Below, piece after piece: positions 43,975 through 60,052 of a DNA stretch of 62,611 nucleotides. The translations under genes were made by a program, and so were the position numbers. Every line of letters begins with the position of its first letter. Within the stretch, counting starts at the first letter, position 1. Under the pieces are notes generated by a model, which saw nothing but the letters and a program-made list of their open reading frames with translations, had not been told where the DNA came from and ran no database searches. This DNA comes from an uncultured Bacillota bacterium (lineage in GTDB: Bacteria; Bacillota; Clostridia; Christensenellales; Borkfalkiaceae): contig CASEHS010000007.1 in the NCBI GenBank assembly GCA_949287815.1, positions 1 through 62,611 on the forward strand, in the 5' to 3' direction.

Positions 43975-45135
43975 TCAAGCAGGTTCGGAGAAGGGAATGT
44001 TGCGGGAAAGGACAGCGAAGATAATCCGCACGAGTTTCTTCATGCCGTGGGACATGGCAACGTAATAATGCTTTCCTTGCGCCCGTTTTCGGTCAATGTA
44101 GGAACGGAAAGAAAGCGAATTGACGTAAGCCATATCGGCAGCACAGTAGAGAGCGCGGCGAAGATAACGCGATCCGTGTTTCACCATTGGAGTGTTGGTG
44201 GCTGTGTATTTGCCGGATTGGTATGTGGACGGTTCACACCCTGCAAAAGCAAGAAGTTTATCAGGGTTGTCGAAATTCTTAATATCGCCGATTTCGGAAA
44301 GGATCGTTGCGCCGAGCAGATTGCCTATACCGGGAATAGACGTAATGGGAGAATTAAGTTCAGCCATAACGGAATCGATTTCACTTTCAATTTCGGACAT
44401 TTGGGAAGAAAGAAACTGAATGCGTGTGACAGTTTGTTTTAACTCGAAAGCGTCGCCGTAGTTGTAAGTAGCAATGGAATTTTGTGCAAGGGATTTAAGT
44501 TGTTCGGCACGACCACGTTTCAACATTCCGCGAGAAAATTCGGATAAAATCTTAGTGAGTTTTAAGATGTTACACTCGGCAATATCTTTGGCGGAAGGTA
44601 AGACAGAAAGCAAGTTCAAAGAAGTATTTCCGTAAAGATTGCTGAAAAATCCTTGCAATTCGGGGAAAAGAACGTGCAAAAGCCGTCTGAAACGGTTTTT
44701 GAGGGGTTGGATTTCCTGAAACAGGCGAAAGCGTGCGCGGGTCATTGACTTTAAGACGGAAATGTTGTAAGATTGGGATTGGTAGGGATTAGCAACACCT
44801 GTCAATAACAATCTTGCTATGTAACGCGAGTCGTTTTTATCCGTTTTGGTTTTTCTCAGCGACGCAGCAGAGCGCAACCGTGAAACGGAAAGTGGGTTAA
44901 AGACCACAACCTCGAAGTCGTGAGTTTTGAGGAAGGACAGCAGATTGGACGAGTAATGACCGGTAGCTTCAATCCCTACTTTTATTTTGCCCCAAGGAGA
45001 GACTTGTTTCAAGAACGATGCAAATCCGGCGGCTGAATTTGCGAAGGTAAAGTTATCGCAGAGGACAACGCCGTCCGAATCAACGGCATATAAATCGTGC
45101 TTGTCCTTAGCGACGTCGATACCGACAAAGACCAT
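43975..45135 (-). CDS. IS110-family DEDD recombinase (transposase)
   Basis: The protein has 386 residues. It starts with the RuvC-like motif MVFVGIDVAKDKHDLYAVD. VGIEATGHYSSNLLSFLKTHDFEVVVFNP and TKTDKNDSRYIA follow, giving the remaining acidic residues. The C-terminal Tnp2 domain has SIPGIGNLLGATILSEIGDIKNF, the GCEPSTYQSGKY segment with the conserved catalytic serine and KHGSRYLRRAL. The start is the ATG eight bases after GGAGG; a longer in-frame extension lacks a ribosome site. These enzymes work with a bridge RNA from the element's own end. The gene appears intact. Confidence 0.93.
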   Translation of the reverse strand: MVFVGIDVAKDKHDLYAVDSDGVVLCDNFTFANSAAGFASFLKQVSPWGKIKVGIEATGHYSSNLLSFLKTHDFEVVVFNPLSVSRLRSAASLRKTKTDKNDSRYIARLLLTGVANPYQSQSYNISVLKSMTRARFRLFQEIQPLKNRFRRLLHVLFPELQGFFSNLYGNTSLNLLSVLPSAKDIAECNILKLTKILSEFSRGMLKRGRAEQLKSLAQNSIATYNYGDAFELKQTVTRIQFLSSQMSEIESEIDSVMAELNSPITSIPGIGNLLGATILSEIGDIKNFDNPDKLLAFAGCEPSTYQSGKYTATNTPMVKHGSRYLRRALYCAADMAYVNSLSFRSYIDRKRAQGKHYYVAMSHGMKKLVRIIFAVLSRNIPFSEPA

Positions 45136-45210
45136 AAAGATAACCTCCGAAGTAAAAATAATAACTCGTGGCGAACCATAAACGAAAAGCCATGTAATCT
45201 CGTGAGACAT

Positions 45211-50420: not shown

Positions 50421-50507
50421 GCGAGTGTGGTGAAATTGGCAGACGCGCTAGATTCAGGTTCTAGTGGGAGCAATCCCTTGCAGGTTCAAGTCCTGTCACT
50501 CGCACCA
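50421..50507 (+). tRNA. tRNA-Leu (CAG)
   Basis: An 87-base class-II tRNA with acceptor arms GCGAGTG and CACTCGC, a long variable arm (GTGGGAGCAATCCCTT), a TTCAAGT T-loop and encoded CCA. The anticodon loop TTCAGGT gives CAG. It marks the left edge of the island at 50508-59250. Confidence 0.95.
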
Positions 50508-50558: not shown

Positions 50559-50780
50559 GCCCGCGATTTCTTCGGAATGATTGTCCGATTGAAGTAGCCC
50601 CTCCGAATTTGCTTTTTCGGGAGGCTTAGTTTTGCATAGTTCCTCGCGGACGTCAACGGCCGCAAAATCGTCGCTGAAAACACCCCATATATAATAGACT
50701 TTTAGAGCCGAGTAAGGAATATTTTCCTTCTCGGCTCTTTTGCCGTCTATAAGGCATTTCCAGACTTGTACGCAACGATT
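50550..50780 (-). pseudogene. Possible C-terminal protein remnant on the minus strand
   Basis: An open frame of 77 codons with no start ATG, with coding-like text such as DGKRAEKENIPYSALK and FSDDFAAVDVREEL, ending near the tRNA-Leu terminator. It also covers the palindrome at 50704-50741, which may explain part of the apparent signal. The family is not recognised. The 50508-50896 gap otherwise contains two terminators and the leader of the next gene. Confidence 0.25.
50704..50741 (+). terminator. Hairpin terminator in the island's left edge
   Basis: AGAGCCGAG pairs with CTCGGCTCT and an inner AAGGAA/TTCCTT stem, followed by TTT. It may insulate the island from upstream transcription. Confidence 0.6.
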
Positions 50781-50896
50781 TTAACTTTGTCCCGTTGACT
50801 TCCGCAGACTTGCTATTTAGTGCACTGATATTTACCGTCCTATGCACCTTCGCCTCTTGCCGAAAAAGGCAAATCAATTCGGAGGTGTAACTCACA

Positions 50897-51565
50897 ATGG
50901 AAATGTTGGTAACAAAGTTCTCAAAAGGAAAGTATCGTAACGAAGGCGAACTGTTCGCCGAACCAATCTCTACGGATAACGTCAAACTCATGGGCGAGAT
51001 GATCGCTTTACAGGCGCTCCGCACCGTAAAGAAGTTTGATATGAAAGTTGCGGACAGATTGTATATCGGTCTCATCAAAGATCTGCACCATATGAGCGAG
51101 ATGGACTATATCGTATCAGACGGTTACGACGTAGCCCAGACTGCTATCTGCTTCCTGTATCAGTACGCCGGCAGAAAGGTTTCCGAGATTTGCGGTAAAG
51201 ACCGTAAAGGAAAGGAAATTACAATCAAACTTGCCTGCTATCGTGAGGTAGACAGATTCATCGATAGCTTACACAACCGCTCCGACAGACGCGGCGCAAT
51301 CGAATACATAGACTTTACGGACTACAAAGCATTACCGATGGACCCCGTGAACTGCTTCGAGAAAGAACAGACCGATTACAGCAAATACGATGAACTTGTA
51401 GCGGCGTTACAGTTATCCGCTTTGGAACTTGCCATTCTGAACTGCTATATGAACGGCATGAGGCAAGCAGAAGTATGCGCTGAACTCGGTATCGGCAGAG
51501 GTACTATCAATCACAGGAAAGCGAGCATCAGGCAAAGGTACTATTCTCTGTACGGCGAATTCTGA
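50897..51565 (+). CDS. Sigma-70 region-4-like helix-turn-helix protein of the island
   Basis: The protein has 222 residues. The C-terminal about 55 residues (LSALELAILNCYMNGMRQAEVCAELGIGRGTINHRKASIRQRY) form a sigma-70 region-4-type helix-turn-helix. The N-terminal part has no recognised sigma region 2, so it is more likely a mobile-element regulator than a full sigma factor. A good GGAGGTG ribosome site lies eight bases upstream. Base composition is richer in G+C than the flanks. It ends in a terminator of the same design as those in the two leader modules downstream. Confidence 0.75.
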   Translation: MEMLVTKFSKGKYRNEGELFAEPISTDNVKLMGEMIALQALRTVKKFDMKVADRLYIGLIKDLHHMSEMDYIVSDGYDVAQTAICFLYQYAGRKVSEICGKDRKGKEITIKLACYREVDRFIDSLHNRSDRRGAIEYIDFTDYKALPMDPVNCFEKEQTDYSKYDELVAALQLSALELAILNCYMNGMRQAEVCAELGIGRGTINHRKASIRQRYYSLYGEF

Positions 51566-51586: not shown

Positions 51587-51627
51587 CCATTGAAAAGGCA
51601 GGCTTTCAATTGGAGGCTTGCTTTTTT
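51587..51627 (+). terminator. Terminator/antiterminator pair after the sigma-like gene
   Basis: Terminator: GCAGGCTTTC pairs with GGAGGCTTGC (10 bp, AATT loop), then T6. Alternative: CCATTGAAA (51587-51595) pairs with TTTCAATTGG (51604-51613) and would block it. The 3' arm TTGGAGGC..GC-T6 matches the terminators at 51952 and 52148. Confidence 0.7.
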
Positions 51628-51731
51628 ATGCATCAAGTTTACACTGCTTTTATGTCGTTGAATTTTCATTAAATTTCACTTACCAAATAAAAGACATATC
51701 GGACAATATTGAACTATACATTCAAGCATAT

Positions 51732-51762
51732 AGCCGTAATCGAATGAGATTGCGGCTTTTTT
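51732..51762 (+). terminator. Intrinsic terminator in the island
   Basis: AGCCGTAATC pairs with GATTGCGGCT (10 bp, one wobble), followed by six T. It has no gene directly upstream; it may end read-through from the sigma-like gene. The stretch 51628-51731 shows nothing else. Confidence 0.75.
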
Positions 51763-51773
51763 GCTATAAAGCA

Positions 51774-51802
51774 TTGCCTTTTAACTGCTATTGTGCTATA
51801 CT
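51774..51802 (+). promoter_or_regulatory. Extended -10 promoter of leader module A
   Basis: TTGCCT, a 17-base spacer and TATACT with TGC directly before the -10 box. The predicted start (51809) is the first base of the module A hairpin. The -10 area TTGTGCTATACT resembles module B's TTGTGATACACT. Confidence 0.75.
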
Positions 51803-51808
51803 AAAAAT

Positions 51809-51952
51809 GCGCTACAATTTAATGATCCGTATAAGGTTACACAACGGCATTGGTGTACCCTTTATATCCTTATACGGATAAATTGTAGCGCAAACAATTA
51901 AGGGGATACAACTATGCGGGCGTTCCCTTAATTGGGGGCGCTCTTATTTTTT
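51809..51952 (+). ncRNA. Leader/small RNA module A with attenuator
   Basis: About 144 bases. Tier 1: GCGCTACAATTT (51809-51820) with AAATTGTAGCGC (51880-51891), 12 bp. Tier 2: ATCCGTATAAGG (51825-51836) with CCTTATACGGAT (51868-51879), 12 bp. An apical TACAC/GTGTA stem lies inside. Then CAATTAAGGG (51895-51904) with CCCTTAATTG (51925-51934) competes with the terminator GGGCGTTCCC (51918-51927) / GGGGGCGCTC (51934-51943), which is followed by TTATTTTTT. The two hairpins share CCC...G, so only one can form. The module has its own promoter and could also act as a free small RNA. Confidence 0.75.
51914..51931 (+). CDS. Leader peptide A (MRAFP)
   Basis: ATGCGGGCGTTCCCTTAA, with AAGGGG eight bases upstream. 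The frame lies across the 3' arm of the antiterminator and the 5' arm of the terminator, so a ribosome here would change which hairpin forms. Too short to support on its own; the case rests on its paralogue in module B. Confidence 0.4.
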   Translation: MRAFP

Positions 51953-51975
51953 AGCAAATACCTGCGGCGCTGCTC

Positions 51976-52004
51976 TTGCAAAATCCGCCCGCTTGTGATA
52001 CACT
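51976..52004 (+). promoter_or_regulatory. Extended -10 promoter of leader module B
   Basis: TTGCAA, a 17-base spacer and TACACT with TGA directly before it. Predicted start 52011 is the first base of the module B hairpin, as in module A. Confidence 0.75.
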
Positions 52005-52010
52005 GTAATC

Positions 52011-52148
52011 GCTACACAAACTGAATATTCACATAACGGATACGAACAGGCATTTCGTATCTCTATTTTCCGTTATGTGAAAGTTTGTGTAGCAGCAATC
52101 GGAGATACTTTATGCGGGGCGTGTCTTCGGTTGGAGGCACGCTTTTTT
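52011..52148 (+). ncRNA. Leader RNA module B with attenuator, upstream of the BspA-like gene
   Basis: About 138 bases, with the same architecture as module A but mostly different bases. Tier 1: GCTACACAAACT (52011-52022) / AGTTTGTGTAGC (52082-52093), 12 bp. Tier 2: TTCACATAACGGA (52028-52040) / TCCGTTATGTGAA (52069-52081), 13 bp. Apical ATACGAA/TTCGTAT. Antiterminator: CAATCGGAGATAC (52096-52108) / GTGTCTTCGGTTG (52121-52133), 13 bp with wobbles. Terminator: GCGTGTCTTC (52119-52128) / GGAGGCACGC (52133-52142), loop GGTT, T6. Compensatory differences from module A support the pairing as real. Confidence 0.8.
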
Positions 52149-52177
52149 CTTTCCCCGCGAACGCAGCAGGAGGCTGA
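52112..52177 (+). CDS. Leader peptide B, abutting the BspA-like gene
   Basis: 21 codons starting MRGVSSVGG and ending ANAAGG. CGGAG lies seven bases before the ATG, in the loop of the antiterminator. The frame reads through the whole terminator hairpin and its T run, and its TGA stop is followed immediately by the ATG of the lipoprotein gene, so translation could be coupled. Shares the ATGCGGG start with leader A. Confidence 0.5.
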   Translation: MRGVSSVGGTLFSFPANAAGG

Positions 52178-55100
52178 ATGATGAAACGAAAACTGTTGGT
52201 TATCGTAATGGCTGTCGTAATGGTATTTTCATGTGCCATAGGATTTGCCGCATGCGGCGACAAAGGCGATGGCGGCGGTGGCGGAGGCGGGAACGGCACG
52301 ACCTATACCGTGACGTTTGAAACGGTCGGCGGTACGGCGATCGACCCCGTAGAGGTAAATGCTGGCGATACCGTGGCAAGACCTACCAATCCGACCAAAA
52401 CAGGTGCGGAATTTATAGACTGGTTCACTACGAGTACATATGAGGGCGACCCCTACGATTTTTCAACGCCTGTTAATTCCAACATCACATTGTATGCGCA
52501 ATGGTCGGATGAAAATTATGCGGTCGTATTTGATGTGAACGGCGGTTCCCCAGTTATCGAATATGCGACCTATGCCTACGGCACCGAGATAGACGAGCCT
52601 GACGATCCTGAGCGCGTCGGCTATACATTCACGGGCTGGTACACCGACGTGAAATGTACAAAGGCAGCTTCTTTCCCTTATGAGGTGACGAAACATACTC
52701 GTTTTTATGCCGGTTGGGAAAGCGCGCGCGAAGTGACGGTGAACTTTAAGATCGCTATGTTACGGGGCGACACGCGCGATATCAACTATGACGAAGAAAT
52801 ACTCGCTCCGATGACGATAACGGCAGGCGAAGAGCTTACCCAGCCCGAAAATCCGAAGGATATTACTTATCTCGATGAAGACGGAACGCATACGCTAAAA
52901 TTTTCCTATTGGAATTTTGATCCCGTTTACGGCGACTATTCCGATGCAGTGCTTTTCCCCGTGCGCACTACGGATGTCGAAGAGATTACACTGTATGCCG
53001 TGTACGTTGAGGTGGACGAAGAAGACACCTATGCAAGCCTTACCGTTCACCCGAATAACGGCGAAGAAGAAACGGTAATGTATGGCGTACAGGGCGAGGC
53101 GCTCGCCATTTCCAACCTCAACGAACACGACCCCGCGCCATTCTATTCGGATAAAAAACTTCCTCGCAATCCGGGTTACGAGGCAACAGGATATTTCAAG
53201 ACGCCTGATTTTGAATCCGGCACGGTATACGAAATTCCTTTCGTGCTTGAAAACGAGCAGAACGATGTATATATCCGTTGGGAAAAGAAGGATGATCTTA
53301 CCGTTACGTTCGACTATGGGTTCGACAGCATCGAAGACGAGACCGCCACATTCTCATATCGCGGGCTTATAGAGCGCCCCGAAAATAAAATGGTGACGGG
53401 CTACACCTTCGACGGCTGGTATTATGAATTGTATTCGGCAGTGGAAGAACAGCGCTGGAATTTTGAAACGGATACGGCTTCCACGGATATTACGCTCACC
53501 GCAAAATGGGTGAAGACAGCAACGGTGATCACTTACGACACATGCGGCGGGTATGAGCGCAATCCTGTTGCCGTCAGCCAGGGACGTGAGATAAAAGAAT
53601 TGCCCATCCCTGTCCGTCAGACTGGCGATACAGTTTATAACTTCCTCGGTTGGTATCTCGACAGCGGATATACGCAGGAAGCGGCGCTGCCTATGACAAT
53701 AAACGAGGATATTACCCTTTACGCAAAGTGGAGCAACGCAATAGACATCAGTTTATTTGAAATTCTCGACATAGGCGCGTCAAATGACTATGGCTATTCG
53801 ATTCGCGTGAGGTCGAATGCGAAGGAAGAGATTTCAGGTTCCGTTACTTTACCTGCACGATATGGAGGTGAAGACATCAGACGAATAGAAACGAATGCCT
53901 TTGCTGATTGCATAAATATAACCGAAATCATTGTTCCAGACACTGTTGCTTATTTATATCAAAATGCTTTCAGCGGATGTTCTTCGCTTGAAAAAATCAC
54001 TCTTCCCGAAACTTTGAAACAGATAAGCCGAGGCGCTTTTTCCGGCTGTGAAAAACTTGCCGAAGTAAATTTCCCTGATTCGGCATACAGCATTTATGCC
54101 GATATATTTGCCGATTGCCCGCTCATGCTTGAACAGCTTGAACAGGATACAGACGGTAATTACTATTGGGAATCAGCATTCCTCGGTAAGAGCTATGTGA
54201 CGGGCGAAAAGGTAGAAGACGATACGACGACTTCTGTAACGGTGCGTGATGGGACTACCGTCGTAGCCACATATTCGCTCTATTATATGAACGCATTGGA
54301 AACGGTGACTTTTGCCGATACGGTAAAATATCTGCCGAGCTATGTATTCCCTGCCAATGACGATTGCCCCATTAAAACGATCAATCTGCCGGCATCATAT
54401 ACCGAAGCTGGAAATCTGACTACGCATTTTCCCGTTAACGTGGAAACTTTTACGCTCTCCGATGCGAATGAGGAATTTGACTTGATTGACGGTTGCCTGA
54501 TATATGTTGATGATAACCGTCTGATTGCCTCTACCGTAAACGCAACAACTATCCCCGACGGCGTTGTGATCATCGGTGAAAGTTCGTTTACGAACAAAAA
54601 GACTGAAACTGTGGTCATACCCGATACCGTCACTACTATTCGCGAAAATGCCTTTGCAAACAGTTCGTTTACGAATATCAATCTTCCTGACAGTGTCGGT
54701 ATTCTGGACAGTACGGCGTTTGCGGGTTGCTCGGATATGCTCTCCATCACGTTCGGCGCCGGAATCAATTTGCAGAACGCTGCGCTGTTTGATGATATGA
54801 ACAAACTTCAAACGTTGAGCGTGAGCGCGAATAACCCGTATATGTACAGTCAGACGGACGTGCTTTACAGCAAGGCGACGAACACTATCATGTACTTTGC
54901 GCCCAAACACACCGGCCCCATAGAACTGGCTGAAGGGCTTGAAACTTTGCCTGCAGATGTTTTTGACATCAGTTCGGGTATCATTGAAAGTTTCGTCATC
55001 CCCGACAGTGTAACGGCGATTGAAGACGGTGCTTTCGACAGTATGTCTGTCGGTTCGCTCTACCTCGGTAAAAACGTACCCAAACTGAATGCCGATATGG

Positions 55101-58009
55101 GGTCGTTGATTTTGGTGAGCAGCGTGGAGGTTTCTGCTGAAAACCCGTATATGACATCGGTCGACGGCGTGCTTTACAGCAAAGACATGACCGAACTTTT
55201 GCTGTTCCCCGCTGAACGCGCCGGCTACGTTTTCCCCGATACCGTTACAAAGGTCGACGACTATATTTATATGCCATACCTCGATGACCTGACCGTCGGT
55301 GCGGGTATTACGCGCGAAACGTTTGAATTCCTTTTGTACGGCAATGAAGAAAACGGATGGGAGCCGGCCGTAACGTACGGTCTGAACACAGTAAATGTGA
55401 GCGCTGATAACAAAGAACTTACCATTTTTGAAGGCGTGGTGTATTCCAAAGACAAAAAGGAACTCGTTTATATCCCTTCGGGGTTTGACGGTGACCTTAT
55501 TCTGCCCAAAGAGATGGAAACTATCGGCTCATACTTTACGACGCGTTCTTCTTTGTGGCATGCAAGCGGCGAAGACGCCGACTACAACACGATCCATATC
55601 AAGACATTGCGCGTAGAAGAAGACAGTATGCTGCGGGAAATTTCCGAAAGCGCGTTTGTAAATATCGCCGATAGAAGCGGCGGATCTGCAAGTTTCCCCG
55701 CTTGGGTAGAAATAAATGAGTATGAATGGGCTGACACGCAAATGCAGGTGGACGAAGTTGACCTGTCTAATGCGACGGAACTTGAAAGCATCGGCTCTTA
55801 TGCATTCTACCGATTGGATACGCTTACTTCGGTAAAATTGCCTGAAACTTCGTATGCGCTCGGAGCGAGTGCGTTTGCTGATTGCACAAGCCTTGAAAGT
55901 GTCAGCGGACTGGCGCAGGCGACAGTAGACAATTCCTTCTATAACTGTCCGAAACTTTTTAACGAAGACGGACTGCTGATCATAGACGGCGTGTTGCTTG
56001 GTTTTGACATTTCTTCTTCGAATCCAAATTTGACCGGCGACCTTATTATACCGGAAAACGTCACAAAGATCGCAGGCGGTGCTCTCCGCTGGGTGGTTCT
56101 GCGCAGCATACGCATTCCCGATACAGTAGAGCTTGTATGCGAGGGCGCCATAGATCCTTCCGCAGATATCATCATCTATATTGAAGGTGAAAATACGGAG
56201 TATGAGGACGGCTGGTACGTTGACGGCGGCGATTGCGAAATCGTTATAATGAGGAACGGAGAATCCGAAAGCGGAGTTTACTACTATGTTGAACCCGAAA
56301 CAGGGCTGTATTACAGGCTCGATCCGAACGGTACGGCAAGCCTCATCAACGATAATTCCGCAACCGAAGCATGGGCGGGAAATGTAACGCTCGGCAATGT
56401 AGTGAACGGCGGGGAAGAATACATTCTCACTGAGATCGGAGAAAACGCATTCGGTGTAAATAGCAGCGGCATCACAGGCATAACCTTGCCGGATACTCTT
56501 ATCAAGATAGGCGGGAGTACCTTTGACTACATCGCCGTTGAGGAGCTCACCATTCCCGACAGTGTTGAAGAGATAGGTACTTTCCTGTTCTACGGCAACG
56601 AAACAATTAAAAGAGTGACGCTTTCATCGCAAATCACTGAAATACCGGATTATACATTCTATGGCTGCACAGTATTGGAAACGGTAGAGTGCGGAAATAT
56701 AACTTCCATAGCGGATAACGCATTCAACGGATGTATCAATCTGAAAGACTTTGACTTTACGAATGTTGAAACGTTAGGCGGTTATGCCTTCCGGGACAGC
56801 GGCATTACGCAGGCCAATTTCACAAAAGTAAAGACGATAGGCGACTATGCTTTCAGCGGCTGTTCCGCGCTTACAACGCTCACCATGAACGAAGGGCTTA
56901 CAAGCGTCGGGAAACAGGCATTTGGCGGAACGGGCATCAAAGAACTTTCCGTTCCCGCTTCGCTCACCGAGGTCGGCGACCACGCATTCTACGGCAACAG
57001 CGCGCTTGAAAAAGTTACGTTTGCTGGCGGTGTGTATGGCAAAGGTGCATTCCAGCAAAACGCAGTGCTCGCGACGGTGGTTTTTGTTGGCGGCATAGAT
57101 TACGAGGTTGGCGATCAGGCATTCTGGCAATGTACGGGGCTTACTTCAGTCACATTCGGTAACGGACTTACTTCTATCGGCGCCTATGCTTTCAGCGAAA
57201 CGGCGATAACGTCGCTTTCCTTCCCCGCAACATTAAAGACTATAGGAGACCATGCGTTCTATGATTGCATTACGACTGTTCCTGTTAAAGACGGAGAAAG
57301 TTACGAAACGCCTTCGCTCACTTCCGTTACATTTGCAGAGGGATTGGAGAGTATAGGCAATTACGCATTCTATCATGCAGCGCTTTCCGAAGTAACTTTC
57401 CCTAAAACACTTAAAATCATCGGGGATTATGCGTTTTATTATAATTTTACGCAAACACTTTCCGAAACGGACGGAACGCTGACTAAGACTGCTACATTGA
57501 AGAAAATCAATTTCAGCGAAGGGCTTACAAGCATCGGTACATATGCGTTCTATATGGCACCCGTTGAAAGTCTGGTAATGCCGGCATCGCTCACGGAATA
57601 CGGTGATCTTGCATTCCTCGGTTGTTCGTCGTTGAAAGAGGTAACTTTCGCGGACGGTTCAACAAATATAGGCGGAAAAGATGTCTTCCAGTGCAAAGCA
57701 CTCGAAAAGGTGACTTTCGGTTCGAGCAACGGGCTTGTGATCGCGGCAAGAACATTCTACGGTGCAAGTGCGCTGAAAGAGATTGTCTTTGCCGAAAATT
57801 GCGCGGTCAAAGAAATGGGTGATTATGCGTTCGGCAATACCGCGCTTACAGAATTTACTCTGCCCGGAGTTGAAGTTATGGGCAGGCAGGTATTCTACCA
57901 CTGCACAGGTCTGACTCTAACCGTTCCCTATGCCGAGGATGCATTGCCGGAAGGCTGGTCGACAAACTGGAACACCACGGCTGACGCGAAAGTCGTCTAC
58001 GCCGGGTAA
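52178..58009 (+). CDS. BspA-like leucine-rich-repeat surface lipoprotein with InlB B-repeats
   Basis: The protein has 1943 residues. A lipoprotein signal peptide ends in GFAAC (Cys26), followed by a Gly-rich linker, then five or six Listeria-Bacteroides (InlB B/Flg_new) repeats at about 45-570 (for example YTVTFETVGG..FIDWFT...ITLYAQW). From about 570 to 1940 there are many BspA-type LRR_5 units of the form AFxxCxxLxxVxLPxxLxxIGxxAF. It is exported and lipid-anchored and would be exposed on the surface; host or partner-cell adhesion is the usual inference. AGGAGG is four bases before ATG 52178 and seven before ATG 52181, so the second may be used. G+C is higher than in the flanks. Confidence 0.9.
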   Translation: MMKRKLLVIVMAVVMVFSCAIGFAACGDKGDGGGGGGGNGTTYTVTFETVGGTAIDPVEVNAGDTVARPTNPTKTGAEFIDWFTTSTYEGDPYDFSTPVNSNITLYAQWSDENYAVVFDVNGGSPVIEYATYAYGTEIDEPDDPERVGYTFTGWYTDVKCTKAASFPYEVTKHTRFYAGWESAREVTVNFKIAMLRGDTRDINYDEEILAPMTITAGEELTQPENPKDITYLDEDGTHTLKFSYWNFDPVYGDYSDAVLFPVRTTDVEEITLYAVYVEVDEEDTYASLTVHPNNGEEETVMYGVQGEALAISNLNEHDPAPFYSDKKLPRNPGYEATGYFKTPDFESGTVYEIPFVLENEQNDVYIRWEKKDDLTVTFDYGFDSIEDETATFSYRGLIERPENKMVTGYTFDGWYYELYSAVEEQRWNFETDTASTDITLTAKWVKTATVITYDTCGGYERNPVAVSQGREIKELPIPVRQTGDTVYNFLGWYLDSGYTQEAALPMTINEDITLYAKWSNAIDISLFEILDIGASNDYGYSIRVRSNAKEEISGSVTLPARYGGEDIRRIETNAFADCINITEIIVPDTVAYLYQNAFSGCSSLEKITLPETLKQISRGAFSGCEKLAEVNFPDSAYSIYADIFADCPLMLEQLEQDTDGNYYWESAFLGKSYVTGEKVEDDTTTSVTVRDGTTVVATYSLYYMNALETVTFADTVKYLPSYVFPANDDCPIKTINLPASYTEAGNLTTHFPVNVETFTLSDANEEFDLIDGCLIYVDDNRLIASTVNATTIPDGVVIIGESSFTNKKTETVVIPDTVTTIRENAFANSSFTNINLPDSVGILDSTAFAGCSDMLSITFGAGINLQNAALFDDMNKLQTLSVSANNPYMYSQTDVLYSKATNTIMYFAPKHTGPIELAEGLETLPADVFDISSGIIESFVIPDSVTAIEDGAFDSMSVGSLYLGKNVPKLNADMGSLILVSSVEVSAENPYMTSVDGVLYSKDMTELLLFPAERAGYVFPDTVTKVDDYIYMPYLDDLTVGAGITRETFEFLLYGNEENGWEPAVTYGLNTVNVSADNKELTIFEGVVYSKDKKELVYIPSGFDGDLILPKEMETIGSYFTTRSSLWHASGEDADYNTIHIKTLRVEEDSMLREISESAFVNIADRSGGSASFPAWVEINEYEWADTQMQVDEVDLSNATELESIGSYAFYRLDTLTSVKLPETSYALGASAFADCTSLESVSGLAQATVDNSFYNCPKLFNEDGLLIIDGVLLGFDISSSNPNLTGDLIIPENVTKIAGGALRWVVLRSIRIPDTVELVCEGAIDPSADIIIYIEGENTEYEDGWYVDGGDCEIVIMRNGESESGVYYYVEPETGLYYRLDPNGTASLINDNSATEAWAGNVTLGNVVNGGEEYILTEIGENAFGVNSSGITGITLPDTLIKIGGSTFDYIAVEELTIPDSVEEIGTFLFYGNETIKRVTLSSQITEIPDYTFYGCTVLETVECGNITSIADNAFNGCINLKDFDFTNVETLGGYAFRDSGITQANFTKVKTIGDYAFSGCSALTTLTMNEGLTSVGKQAFGGTGIKELSVPASLTEVGDHAFYGNSALEKVTFAGGVYGKGAFQQNAVLATVVFVGGIDYEVGDQAFWQCTGLTSVTFGNGLTSIGAYAFSETAITSLSFPATLKTIGDHAFYDCITTVPVKDGESYETPSLTSVTFAEGLESIGNYAFYHAALSEVTFPKTLKIIGDYAFYYNFTQTLSETDGTLTKTATLKKINFSEGLTSIGTYAFYMAPVESLVMPASLTEYGDLAFLGCSSLKEVTFADGSTNIGGKDVFQCKALEKVTFGSSNGLVIAARTFYGASALKEIVFAENCAVKEMGDYAFGNTALTEFTLPGVEVMGRQVFYHCTGLTLTVPYAEDALPEGWSTNWNTTADAKVVYAG

Positions 58010-58385: not shown

Positions 58386-58431
58386 CTTTTCTTTCACTCT
58401 ATCAGGGTAAGTCGCAAGCCTTTTGCGACTT

Positions 58432-59246
58432 TCAAACAAGATAGCACCCAGCCGCAAAAAAGAAATATTTGACTACATACTTTCGGGAAAGCTCATCTGC
58501 GGAAACTGCAAACACCGTATGAGCGGAGAAAGCGGTACTTCAAGGAACGGAGAAATCCATTACTACTATGTCTGTCTCTCAAAACGGCGCGGAAAGGCGG
58601 ACTGCGATTGCAAAGCCGTCAAAAAGCAAGAGTTAGAAGATTATGTCATCGACGCTACCGTCTCTATGTTGCAACGGAACAGCATCATCACGCAAATCGC
58701 GGAGACCATAGTCAAAGTGCATGAAAAGATCATGCGGGACAATTCGGGCTTGCAGATACTCATCAAGAAGAGAGACGAAGCGCAAAGAGCCGCAGACAAT
58801 ATCGTGAAAGCCATAGAGCAAGGCATCATCATGGACTTTACGAAAGACAGGTTGGCTGCGTTGCAGGACGAATTGAACAGGCTGGACATCGAGATAAACA
58901 AAGAACGCAGAAAACCTACGCCCACGTCACCGTGGAAGACGTGGAAAAGTATCTGCTCTCCAAAGTCTTTGAAGACCCGGACGATATCAAAACACGCAAA
59001 CTGCTCGTAAACACCTTCATCCGCGACATCCTCTGGTACGGCGACCACATCGTCATCACTTACAACTTCCAAGAGTACGCCGCAACGGACAGGTTCTGCA
59101 AATCCTATGTCGAGCAATTAGAAAAGCAGGTCGGGGACGCTTTCCGATCTGATTCTTCTTTCCCTTTGTGTTCGTACAAATTCCGGCACTCGGCACCATG
59201 TGATACACCTATTGCAATTCGAACCTCCGTGGTTGGACAGCAATAG
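58432..59246 (+). pseudogene. Large serine recombinase, N-terminally truncated and frameshifted
   Basis: Starting at KIAPSRKKEIFDYILSGKLICGNCKHRMSG the frame matches the zinc-ribbon and coiled-coil C-terminal part of large serine recombinases (two CxxC-type pairs, then a Leu-rich coiled coil to about 58910). Near 58912 the frame shifts by one base and continues as VTVEDVEKYLLSKVFEDPDDIKTRKLLVNTFI...DHIVITYNF. The catalytic resolvase domain is missing; the GC-rich palindromes and tandem repeat lie where it should be. It is a remnant of the integrase that probably brought in this island. The frameshift could also be an assembly error, but the N-terminal loss cannot. Confidence 0.85.
59187..59199 (+). 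repeat. Right copy of the candidate attachment repeat
   Basis: CACTCGGCACCAT, directly after the recombinase remnant, matches the tRNA-Leu end with one extra G. The bases before it (CAAATTCCGG) also resemble the T-arm. See 50497-50508. Confidence 0.35.
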
Positions 59247-59977: not shown

Positions 59978-60052
59978 TGGCAGGGGAGACGCGATTCGAA
60001 CACGCAACCTACGGTTTTGGAGACCGCTACTCTACCATTGAGCCACTCCCCT
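59978..60052 (-). tRNA. tRNA-Trp (CCA)
   Basis: 75 bases with encoded CCA. Acceptor arms AGGGGAG and CTCCCCT, anticodon loop CTCCAAA with anticodon CCA, T-loop TTCGAAT. Confidence 0.95.

What the first reader, a model, noticed from the sequence alone, without database searches (positions are those of the whole stretch)
51774..52148. Two tandem, paralogous promoter-hairpin-attenuator modules before a BspA-like lipoprotein gene
Modules A and B share a promoter layout (extended -10, 17-base spacer), a transcription start on the first hairpin base, a 12-bp basal stem, a 5' bulge of four to five bases, a 12-13-bp second stem, an apical hairpin, an ATGCGGG leader start and mutually exclusive antiterminator and terminator hairpins. 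The paired arms differ in sequence between A and B but stay complementary. Seen directly: the arms, the promoters and the overlaps. Inference: this is a duplicated attenuation system in which ribosome or factor binding decides whether the surface protein is made. It matches no RNA class I know by name.
Basis: partly seen in the sequence, partly recalled or inferred. Interest (0 to 1): 0.8.

Follow-up and report, generated by a model that had tools for sequence, protein, structure and literature searches.

The report
Undescribed Clostridia attenuator leader RNA family
Two stretches of RNA in front of a bacterial surface-protein gene belong to a switch-like RNA family that has no match in the public RNA library and recurs in many Clostridia species, often in front of surface lipoprotein genes; what the switch senses is unknown.

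Summary
Modules A (51774-51952) and B (51976-52148) each have an extended -10 promoter 6 nt before a bulged hairpin of about 85 nt, then mutually exclusive antiterminator and terminator hairpins. No Rfam 15 family reaches its gathering score on them. Covariance models find relatives in 30 of 40 genomes of the genus, 71 of 297 of the order, 85 of 391 of the class and, in a phylum sample, 1 of 398, the window's own. On 78 aligned copies 40 of 41 pairs change on both sides. I found a further pairing: the 3' strand of the apical hairpin is complementary to the strand that starts the antiterminator (0 of 10,000 permutations as good). This suggests a five-strand switch: 1:2 with 3:4 reads on, 2:3 with 4:5 terminates. 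Within the order, 66 of 112 nearby downstream genes look like lipoproteins (background 16 of 378); outside it 0 of 20. A and B are two dispersed subtypes, not a fresh duplication. The ATGCGGG leader start is not conserved. The trigger is unknown, and no RNA data were available.

The parts
51774..51802 (+). promoter A: TTGCCT, 17-nt spacer, TATACT, TG before the -10
   Evidence: in 151 of 174 copies the -10 ends 6 nt before stem 1, TG in 159, 17-nt spacer in 158
51808..51892 (+). module A hairpin: stem 1 51808-51821 with 51879-51892, 5' bulge about 51822-51825, stem 2 about 51826-51836 with 51868-51878, apical hairpin between
   Evidence: covariation
51839..51857 (+). module A apical stem, strands 1 and 2 (about 51838-51842 with 51853-51857)
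   Evidence: fold
51854..51862 (+). module A strand 2 (TGTACCCTT), complementary to strand 3 at 51900-51910; loop GCAT 51847-51850 complementary to ATGC 51914-51917
   Evidence: read; family-wide test
51895..51934 (+). module A antiterminator: 51895-51904 with 51925-51934 (strands 3 and 4)
   Evidence: 13 covarying pairs over 78 copies
51918..51952 (+). module A terminator 51918-51943 and U-rich tail
51976..52004 (+). promoter B: TTGCAA, 17-nt spacer, TACACT, TG before the -10
   Evidence: read; position conserved in the family
52011..52093 (+). module B hairpin: stem 1 52011-52022 with 52082-52093, bulge 52023-52027, stem 2 52028-52040 with 52069-52081
   Evidence: model match 129 bits
52057..52063 (+). 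module B strand 2 (GTATCTC), complementary to strand 3 GAGATAC at 52102-52108; loop GCAT 52050-52053 complementary to ATGC 52112-52115
52096..52133 (+). module B antiterminator: 52096-52108 with 52121-52133 (strands 3 and 4)
   Evidence: covariation
52116..52148 (+). module B terminator and U-run
52153..52158 (+). CCCCGC, complementary to the antiterminator loop GCGGGG at 52114-52119
   Evidence: read; such complements in 39 of 62 genus copies, 2.7 expected
52178..58009 (+). 1943-aa lipoprotein gene with List_Bact repeats and BspA-type LRR_5, the gene served

Best explanation
A and B are two members of a family, without a match in Rfam 15, of transcription-attenuator leader RNAs of Clostridia whose promoter is locked to the RNA. 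Shown by sequence comparison: a promoter at a nearly constant distance, so that the RNA should start on or next to the first base of a bulged hairpin; five strands with alternative, covarying pairings; a start codon usually within 60 nt after the terminator. Inferred: strands 1:2 (apical stem) with 3:4 (antiterminator) let RNA polymerase read into the gene; strands 2:3 (apical 3' strand with the downstream strand) with 4:5 (terminator) stop it. The 5' bulge between two helices of about 12 bp probably lets the hairpin bend so that its tip reaches strand 3 beside the base of stem 1. A metabolite, ion or protein that favours or blocks this fold would set expression of the surface protein. In the tandem, transcripts from promoter A would pass two such checks, those from B one.
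For: Folding beyond chance. On 78 copies 91.5% of cells paired against 63.5% shuffled, 40 of 41 pairs with changes on both sides, all 13 antiterminator pairs among them; on an alignment not fitted to the model 85.8% against 70.4% and 27 of 41 pairs. On 33 dissimilar copies own partners beat partners from other copies for strands 2:3 (-16.2 against -10.5 kcal/mol), antiterminator (-16.9 against -9.1), terminator (-14.0 against -9.0) and stem 1 (-12.1 against -6.1), each 0 of 10,000 permutations. Antiterminator and terminator share at least 5 nt in 166 of 168 copies and are balanced, mean -16.5 and -16.4. Promoter spacing 6 nt in 151 of 174. Median 34.5 nt from element to start codon, 113 of 148 genes within 60 nt. 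Distribution.
Against: No RNA data: start sites, termination and read-through are predictions. Strand 2:3 is weaker support than the stems: in the full unclustered set a median of 24.5 of 149 foreign partners do as well as the own one, and the own one is in the best 5% in 43 of 150, because members of a subtype share these strands. Lengths of stem 1 and stem 2 do not correlate (Spearman -0.17, p 0.055), which does not help the bend idea. Outside the order the downstream genes are of other kinds (0 of 20 lipoproteins). 16 of 174 copies had no gene by my rule. No ligand or binding protein is identified.
Confidence: 0.75

Rival explanations
1. A protein-dependent attenuator: an RNA-binding protein holds the bulged hairpin or the antiterminator and decides termination.
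For: Many copies per genome form what looks like a regulon; bulged helices are common protein sites (established knowledge). ANTAR proteins occur in 31 of 40 genomes of the genus.
Against: LoaP-type control is unlikely: no genome of the genus has a second NusG (36 of 40 have one, 4 none). LicT/BglG-type is out: 0 of 40. ANTAR is missing in 7 of 30 genomes with the RNA and present in 8 of 10 without. Other or unknown proteins were not tested.
Confidence: 0.3
2. Leader-peptide or ribosome-coupled attenuation: a ribosome starting at ATGCGGG holds strand 3.
For: Strand 3 often resembles a Shine-Dalgarno site; in the genus 61 of 77 copies have such a site plus ATG, GTG or TTG.
Against: Missing in 61 of 91 copies outside the genus; ATG in only 37 of 168 overall; NTG before CRG absent in 88 of 174. 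The position is also needed for the loop pairing, which explains the letters without translation (inference).
Confidence: 0.1
3. Stand-alone small RNA genes with their own promoter and terminator that act in trans; the next gene has its own start.
For: Own promoter and terminator; shared strands within subtypes could pair in trans (inference).
Against: Constant orientation and short distance to the next start codon; a covarying antiterminator makes no sense for a gene that always terminates.
Confidence: 0.1
4. A DNA-level feature (cruciform, operator or small mobile repeat) that happens to fold as RNA.
For: Dispersed copies and copies in viral contigs; no sequence alone excludes a role of the DNA.
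Against: G-U cells outnumber A-C cells 240 to 59 (on a model-fitted alignment); covarying alternative pairings outside the main palindrome.
Confidence: 0.03

Closest known systems
Intrinsic-terminator attenuators of the trp type (established knowledge)
   Same: Exclusive pairings 1:2/3:4 against 2:3/4:5 decide termination before the gene.
   Different: No conserved leader peptide; one of the strands sits in the tip of a long bulged hairpin; promoter spacing is part of the conserved unit.
Riboswitches and orphan riboswitch candidates with transcription-control platforms
   Same: Conserved structured 5' domain followed by an expression platform upstream of genes.
   Different: No ligand known; no Rfam family matches; transcription start fixed at the first stem base; gene set differs between lineages.
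T-box leaders
   Same: 5' leader with antiterminator and terminator in Bacillota.
   Different: No Rfam T-box match; no T-box sequence seen by eye in the printed copies (sequence recalled from memory).
Unnamed candidates of Fremin and Bhatt 2021 (PMC8040213; abstract, section 7 and found passages seen)

Membership tests
Intrinsic-terminator transcription attenuator | terminator with U-run between promoter and gene | tested here: met
Intrinsic-terminator transcription attenuator | antiterminator that overlaps the terminator and is conserved by covariation | tested here: met
   overlap of at least 5 nt in 166 of 168; covariation
Intrinsic-terminator transcription attenuator | regulated read-through | not testable with these tools
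   no RNA data
Riboswitch | conserved structured domain upstream of genes | tested here: met
Riboswitch | specific binding of a small ligand | not testable with these tools
   needs binding or probing experiments
Any family of Rfam 15 | score at or above a gathering cut-off | tested here: not met
   window; 20 loci and 8 loci of the about 160 fetched showed only tRNA and tmRNA; sub-threshold hits
Leader-peptide attenuator | conserved translated leader ORF | tested here: not met
   no site plus start in 77 of 168
LoaP-type antitermination | second, specialised NusG in the genome | tested here: not met
   one NusG in 36 of 40 genomes, none in 4, two in 0
LicT/BglG antitermination | CAT_RBD protein in the genome | tested here: not met
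   0 of 40
ANTAR antitermination | ANTAR protein wherever the RNA is | tested here: inconclusive
   missing in 7 of 30 genomes with the RNA, but many are incomplete drafts

The most novel reading that the evidence does not exclude
A and B represent a new riboswitch class of Clostridia: a bulge-hinged hairpin that binds a small ligand so that its apical strand captures or releases the antiterminator strand, controlling surface lipoproteins in one order and accessory or phage genes elsewhere; in tandem copies two sensors in series would combine two readings.
Probability: 0.4. Interest if true: 0.9.

Novelty: new variant of a known kind. Interest (0 to 1): 0.78.

Why it matters
A strongly covarying leader RNA found in about a fifth of the sampled genomes of its class (85 of 391), with up to seven matches in one genome of the genus and no Rfam entry, means that a layer of control over surface proteins of uncultured gut bacteria has no name yet. 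It makes a concrete question testable: which signal decides whether BspA-type and other lipoproteins are made. If the mechanism holds, a promoter locked to a hairpin whose tip is a switch strand would be a new design among attenuators.

Tried and rejected
Rejected: a general link to the sigma-like ORF P0001 upstream; homologues lie in 3 of 160 loci (L038, L039, L071), two of them the syntenic tandem locus. Rejected: recent local duplication of A and B. Rejected: a general lipoprotein sensor, since 0 of 20 genes outside the order look like lipoproteins. Taken as chance: sub-threshold Rfam hits. Uninformative: the pattern was badly built (its gap fits neither A nor B) and matched no more often than its reversed control (12 against 17). 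Led nowhere: P0001 in viral contigs; exact subtype-B motif in viral contigs (none); plasmids (none); phage records (one unannotated record); defence-family scan (each listed family in 1 or 2 of 129). Literature searches listed no paper that I could recognise as describing this RNA; they cover open-licence PMC text, I saw the listings, and opened only PMC8040213.

Rows dropped before counts: 2 of 37 scanner hits that were plainly other hairpins; 26 of the remaining 35 used for alignment A3; 8 antisense matches of 182 (leaving 174); 6 more without a clear stem 1 or with too little sequence (168), so that 'stem 1 pairs' is partly a selection rule; 33 of 168 as dissimilar representatives; 62 of 77 genus copies with a readable loop motif; 132 of 148 genes within 130 nt for the lipoprotein counts, 129 of those 132 scanned with Pfam, first 450 residues only. 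Four antisense matches were dropped from the tree. Order, class and phylum searches scored only 8-10 candidates per genome, so counts per genome there are capped; the phylum search used E 1e-4, the others 1e-3. R1 was built from genus copies, A and B included, so their own matches are by construction. E-values of these models are rough by the tool's own statement.

Full report
What is there. The window is contig C7 of a 1.885-Mb draft genome. Between a 222-aa ORF (50897-51562) and a 1943-aa lipoprotein gene (52178-58009; Pfam List_Bact repeats and LRR_5) lie two modules. Each has a promoter with extended -10 and 17-nt spacer, 6 nt, then a hairpin of two helices separated by a 5' bulge, then a region that can form either an antiterminator or a terminator with U-run. 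Both main hairpins fold better than all 200 shuffles. Rfam 15 has no match on them at gathering; a permissive scan of 801 bases gave only sub-threshold hits to microRNA, snoRNA and a streptococcal RNA.

Relatives. BLASTN of 51600-52180 against the own genome and 60 relatives gave many copies; all matches with E of about 1e-8 or below lie in genomes of the same genus, at 71-88% identity. From 35 copies found by a hairpin scan I aligned 26 and built a covariance model, R1. R1 matches 30 of 40 genomes of the genus, at most 7 matches per genome, and 71 of 297 genomes, 34 of 125 genera, of the order. A model from 78 copies, mostly of the order outside the genus, R2, matches 85 of 391 genomes, 50 of 223 genera, of the class. 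In a phylum sample it matches only the window's own genome, 1 of 398 at E 1e-4; this serves as a specificity control, though that sample held some genomes of the class, without matches. An exact subtype-B motif occurs in 28 stretches of named contigs, mostly labelled uncultured Clostridia, with Candidatus Gallimonas and Candidatus Coproplasma among them (both are class Clostridia in the NCBI taxonomy). That these belong to the GTDB order Christensenellales is recalled, not shown. Of the fetched loci, 28 were scanned with Rfam at gathering and showed only tRNA and tmRNA. Ten of 12 viral-contig loci tested carry a sense copy, 7 of them different in sequence, before genes I could not name.

Structure evidence. 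On the 78 copies 91.5% of cells are standard pairs (63.5% after shuffling), 40 of 41 pairs have changes on both sides, and sliding the partners by 1-3 columns drops pairing to 34-44%. That alignment is fitted to the model; the unfitted alignment of 26 gives 85.8% against 70.4%, 27 of 41 pairs with changes on both sides, and one of five measures was reached by 1 of 500 shuffles. G-U cells outnumber A-C cells 240 to 59 on the fitted alignment. Stem 1 has 11-13 bp in 109 of 141 measured copies and stem 2 has 11-14 bp in 96 of 141. A bulge of 3 nt or more is on the 5' side in 126 of 164 and on the 3' side in 10. The -10 ends 6 nt before stem 1 in 151 of 174 copies, TG precedes it in 159, the spacer is 17 nt in 158; 132 of 174 reach 9 of 12 consensus letters against 4.5% of shuffles.

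The further pairing. Apical hairpins of the subtypes differ, and the 3' strand of each is complementary both to its own apical 5' strand and to the downstream strand that starts the antiterminator: GUAUCUC with GAGAUAC in B, UGUACCCUU with AAGGG..UACA in A, UGUACUUC with GAAGUACA in C, and other letters in distant copies. This pairing was not part of the models. On 33 dissimilar representatives it is better with the own partner (-16.2) than with partners of other elements (-10.5 kcal/mol), and none of 10,000 permutations reaches it. In the full set of 150 the contrast is weaker (-17.7 own, -13.8 others, -11.0 shuffled; median rank 24.5 of 149), since members of a subtype share these strands. 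Hence five strands: 1:2 and 3:4 against 2:3 and 4:5. Antiterminator and terminator are balanced in predicted energy, -16.5 and -16.4 on average, the terminator lower in 81 of 168, as a switch would need. In the genus a complement of the antiterminator loop lies after the U-run in 39 of 62 copies, 2.7 expected; its role is unknown to me.

Genes served. For 148 distinct genes the median distance from element to start codon is 34.5 nt, 113 within 60 nt. Of the 132 within 130 nt, 66 look like lipoproteins by my rule, against 16 of 378 other ORFs of the same loci (Fisher 1e-30): 37 of 63 in the genus, 29 of 49 in the rest of the order, 0 of 20 outside the order. Of 129 scanned, 37 match LRR_5 and 10 Zn_Ribbon_1 in their first 450 residues. 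The lipoprotein rule is a simple pattern of mine, not a trained predictor, and my choice of the downstream gene favours good ribosome sites.

Two subtypes in series. In a midpoint-rooted FastTree of 62 genus copies, A and B fall into separate groups dispersed over the genus; I looked at no support values. Eleven tandem pairs less than 300 nt apart exist among 161 locus-strands; the order A then B recurs in L038, L039 and L040.

Mechanism. I take the family to be bistable attenuators whose hairpin, bent at the bulge, decides whether strand 3 is held by the tip (terminate) or free to form the antiterminator (read on). Which state the signal favours, and what the signal is, is not shown. The bend is inferred from geometry alone: the tip lies some 25 bp from the base of stem 1, and strand 3 begins a few bases after it; the lengths of the two stems do not correlate. 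Known protein antiterminators were tested in the genus: no second NusG, no CAT_RBD protein, and ANTAR proteins without a clear link to the RNA. A conserved leader start is not there.

Novelty. The kind, an attenuator leader, is known; the family has no match in Rfam 15 in the loci scanned and was not recognised in the papers that my searches listed. Supplementary tables and subscription papers were not seen.

Noticed in passing
window 50593-50620, 50860-50892 and ORF 50897-51562: The ribosome site of the sigma-like ORF lies in a long-range inverted repeat; the ORF has four further homologues in the own genome (five places with itself), and in L075 a hairpin seals the start of a homologue by eye.
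   Followed up: partly
window 52114-52119 with 52153-52158, and the like in genus copies: The antiterminator loop is complementary to a stretch just after the U-run, 39 of 62 in the genus against 2.7 expected; role unexplained.
   Followed up: partly
window 43975-45207 (-): IS110-type transposase ORF.
   Followed up: no
window 58423-59007 and tRNA genes 50421-50507, 59978-60052: Short ORF matching part of an integrase profile (phrog_95) after the lipoprotein gene, with tRNA-Leu and tRNA-Trp on either side; perhaps remains of an integrated element.
   Followed up: no
L259-L268 (viral contigs): Copies of the RNA in viral contigs before accessory-looking genes without a recognised function.
   Followed up: partly
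L178, L180, L181, L121, L134 and others: A second recurrent class of served genes begins with zinc-ribbon motifs: at least two CxxC in the first 60 residues in 18 of 132, background 12 of 378.
   Followed up: partly
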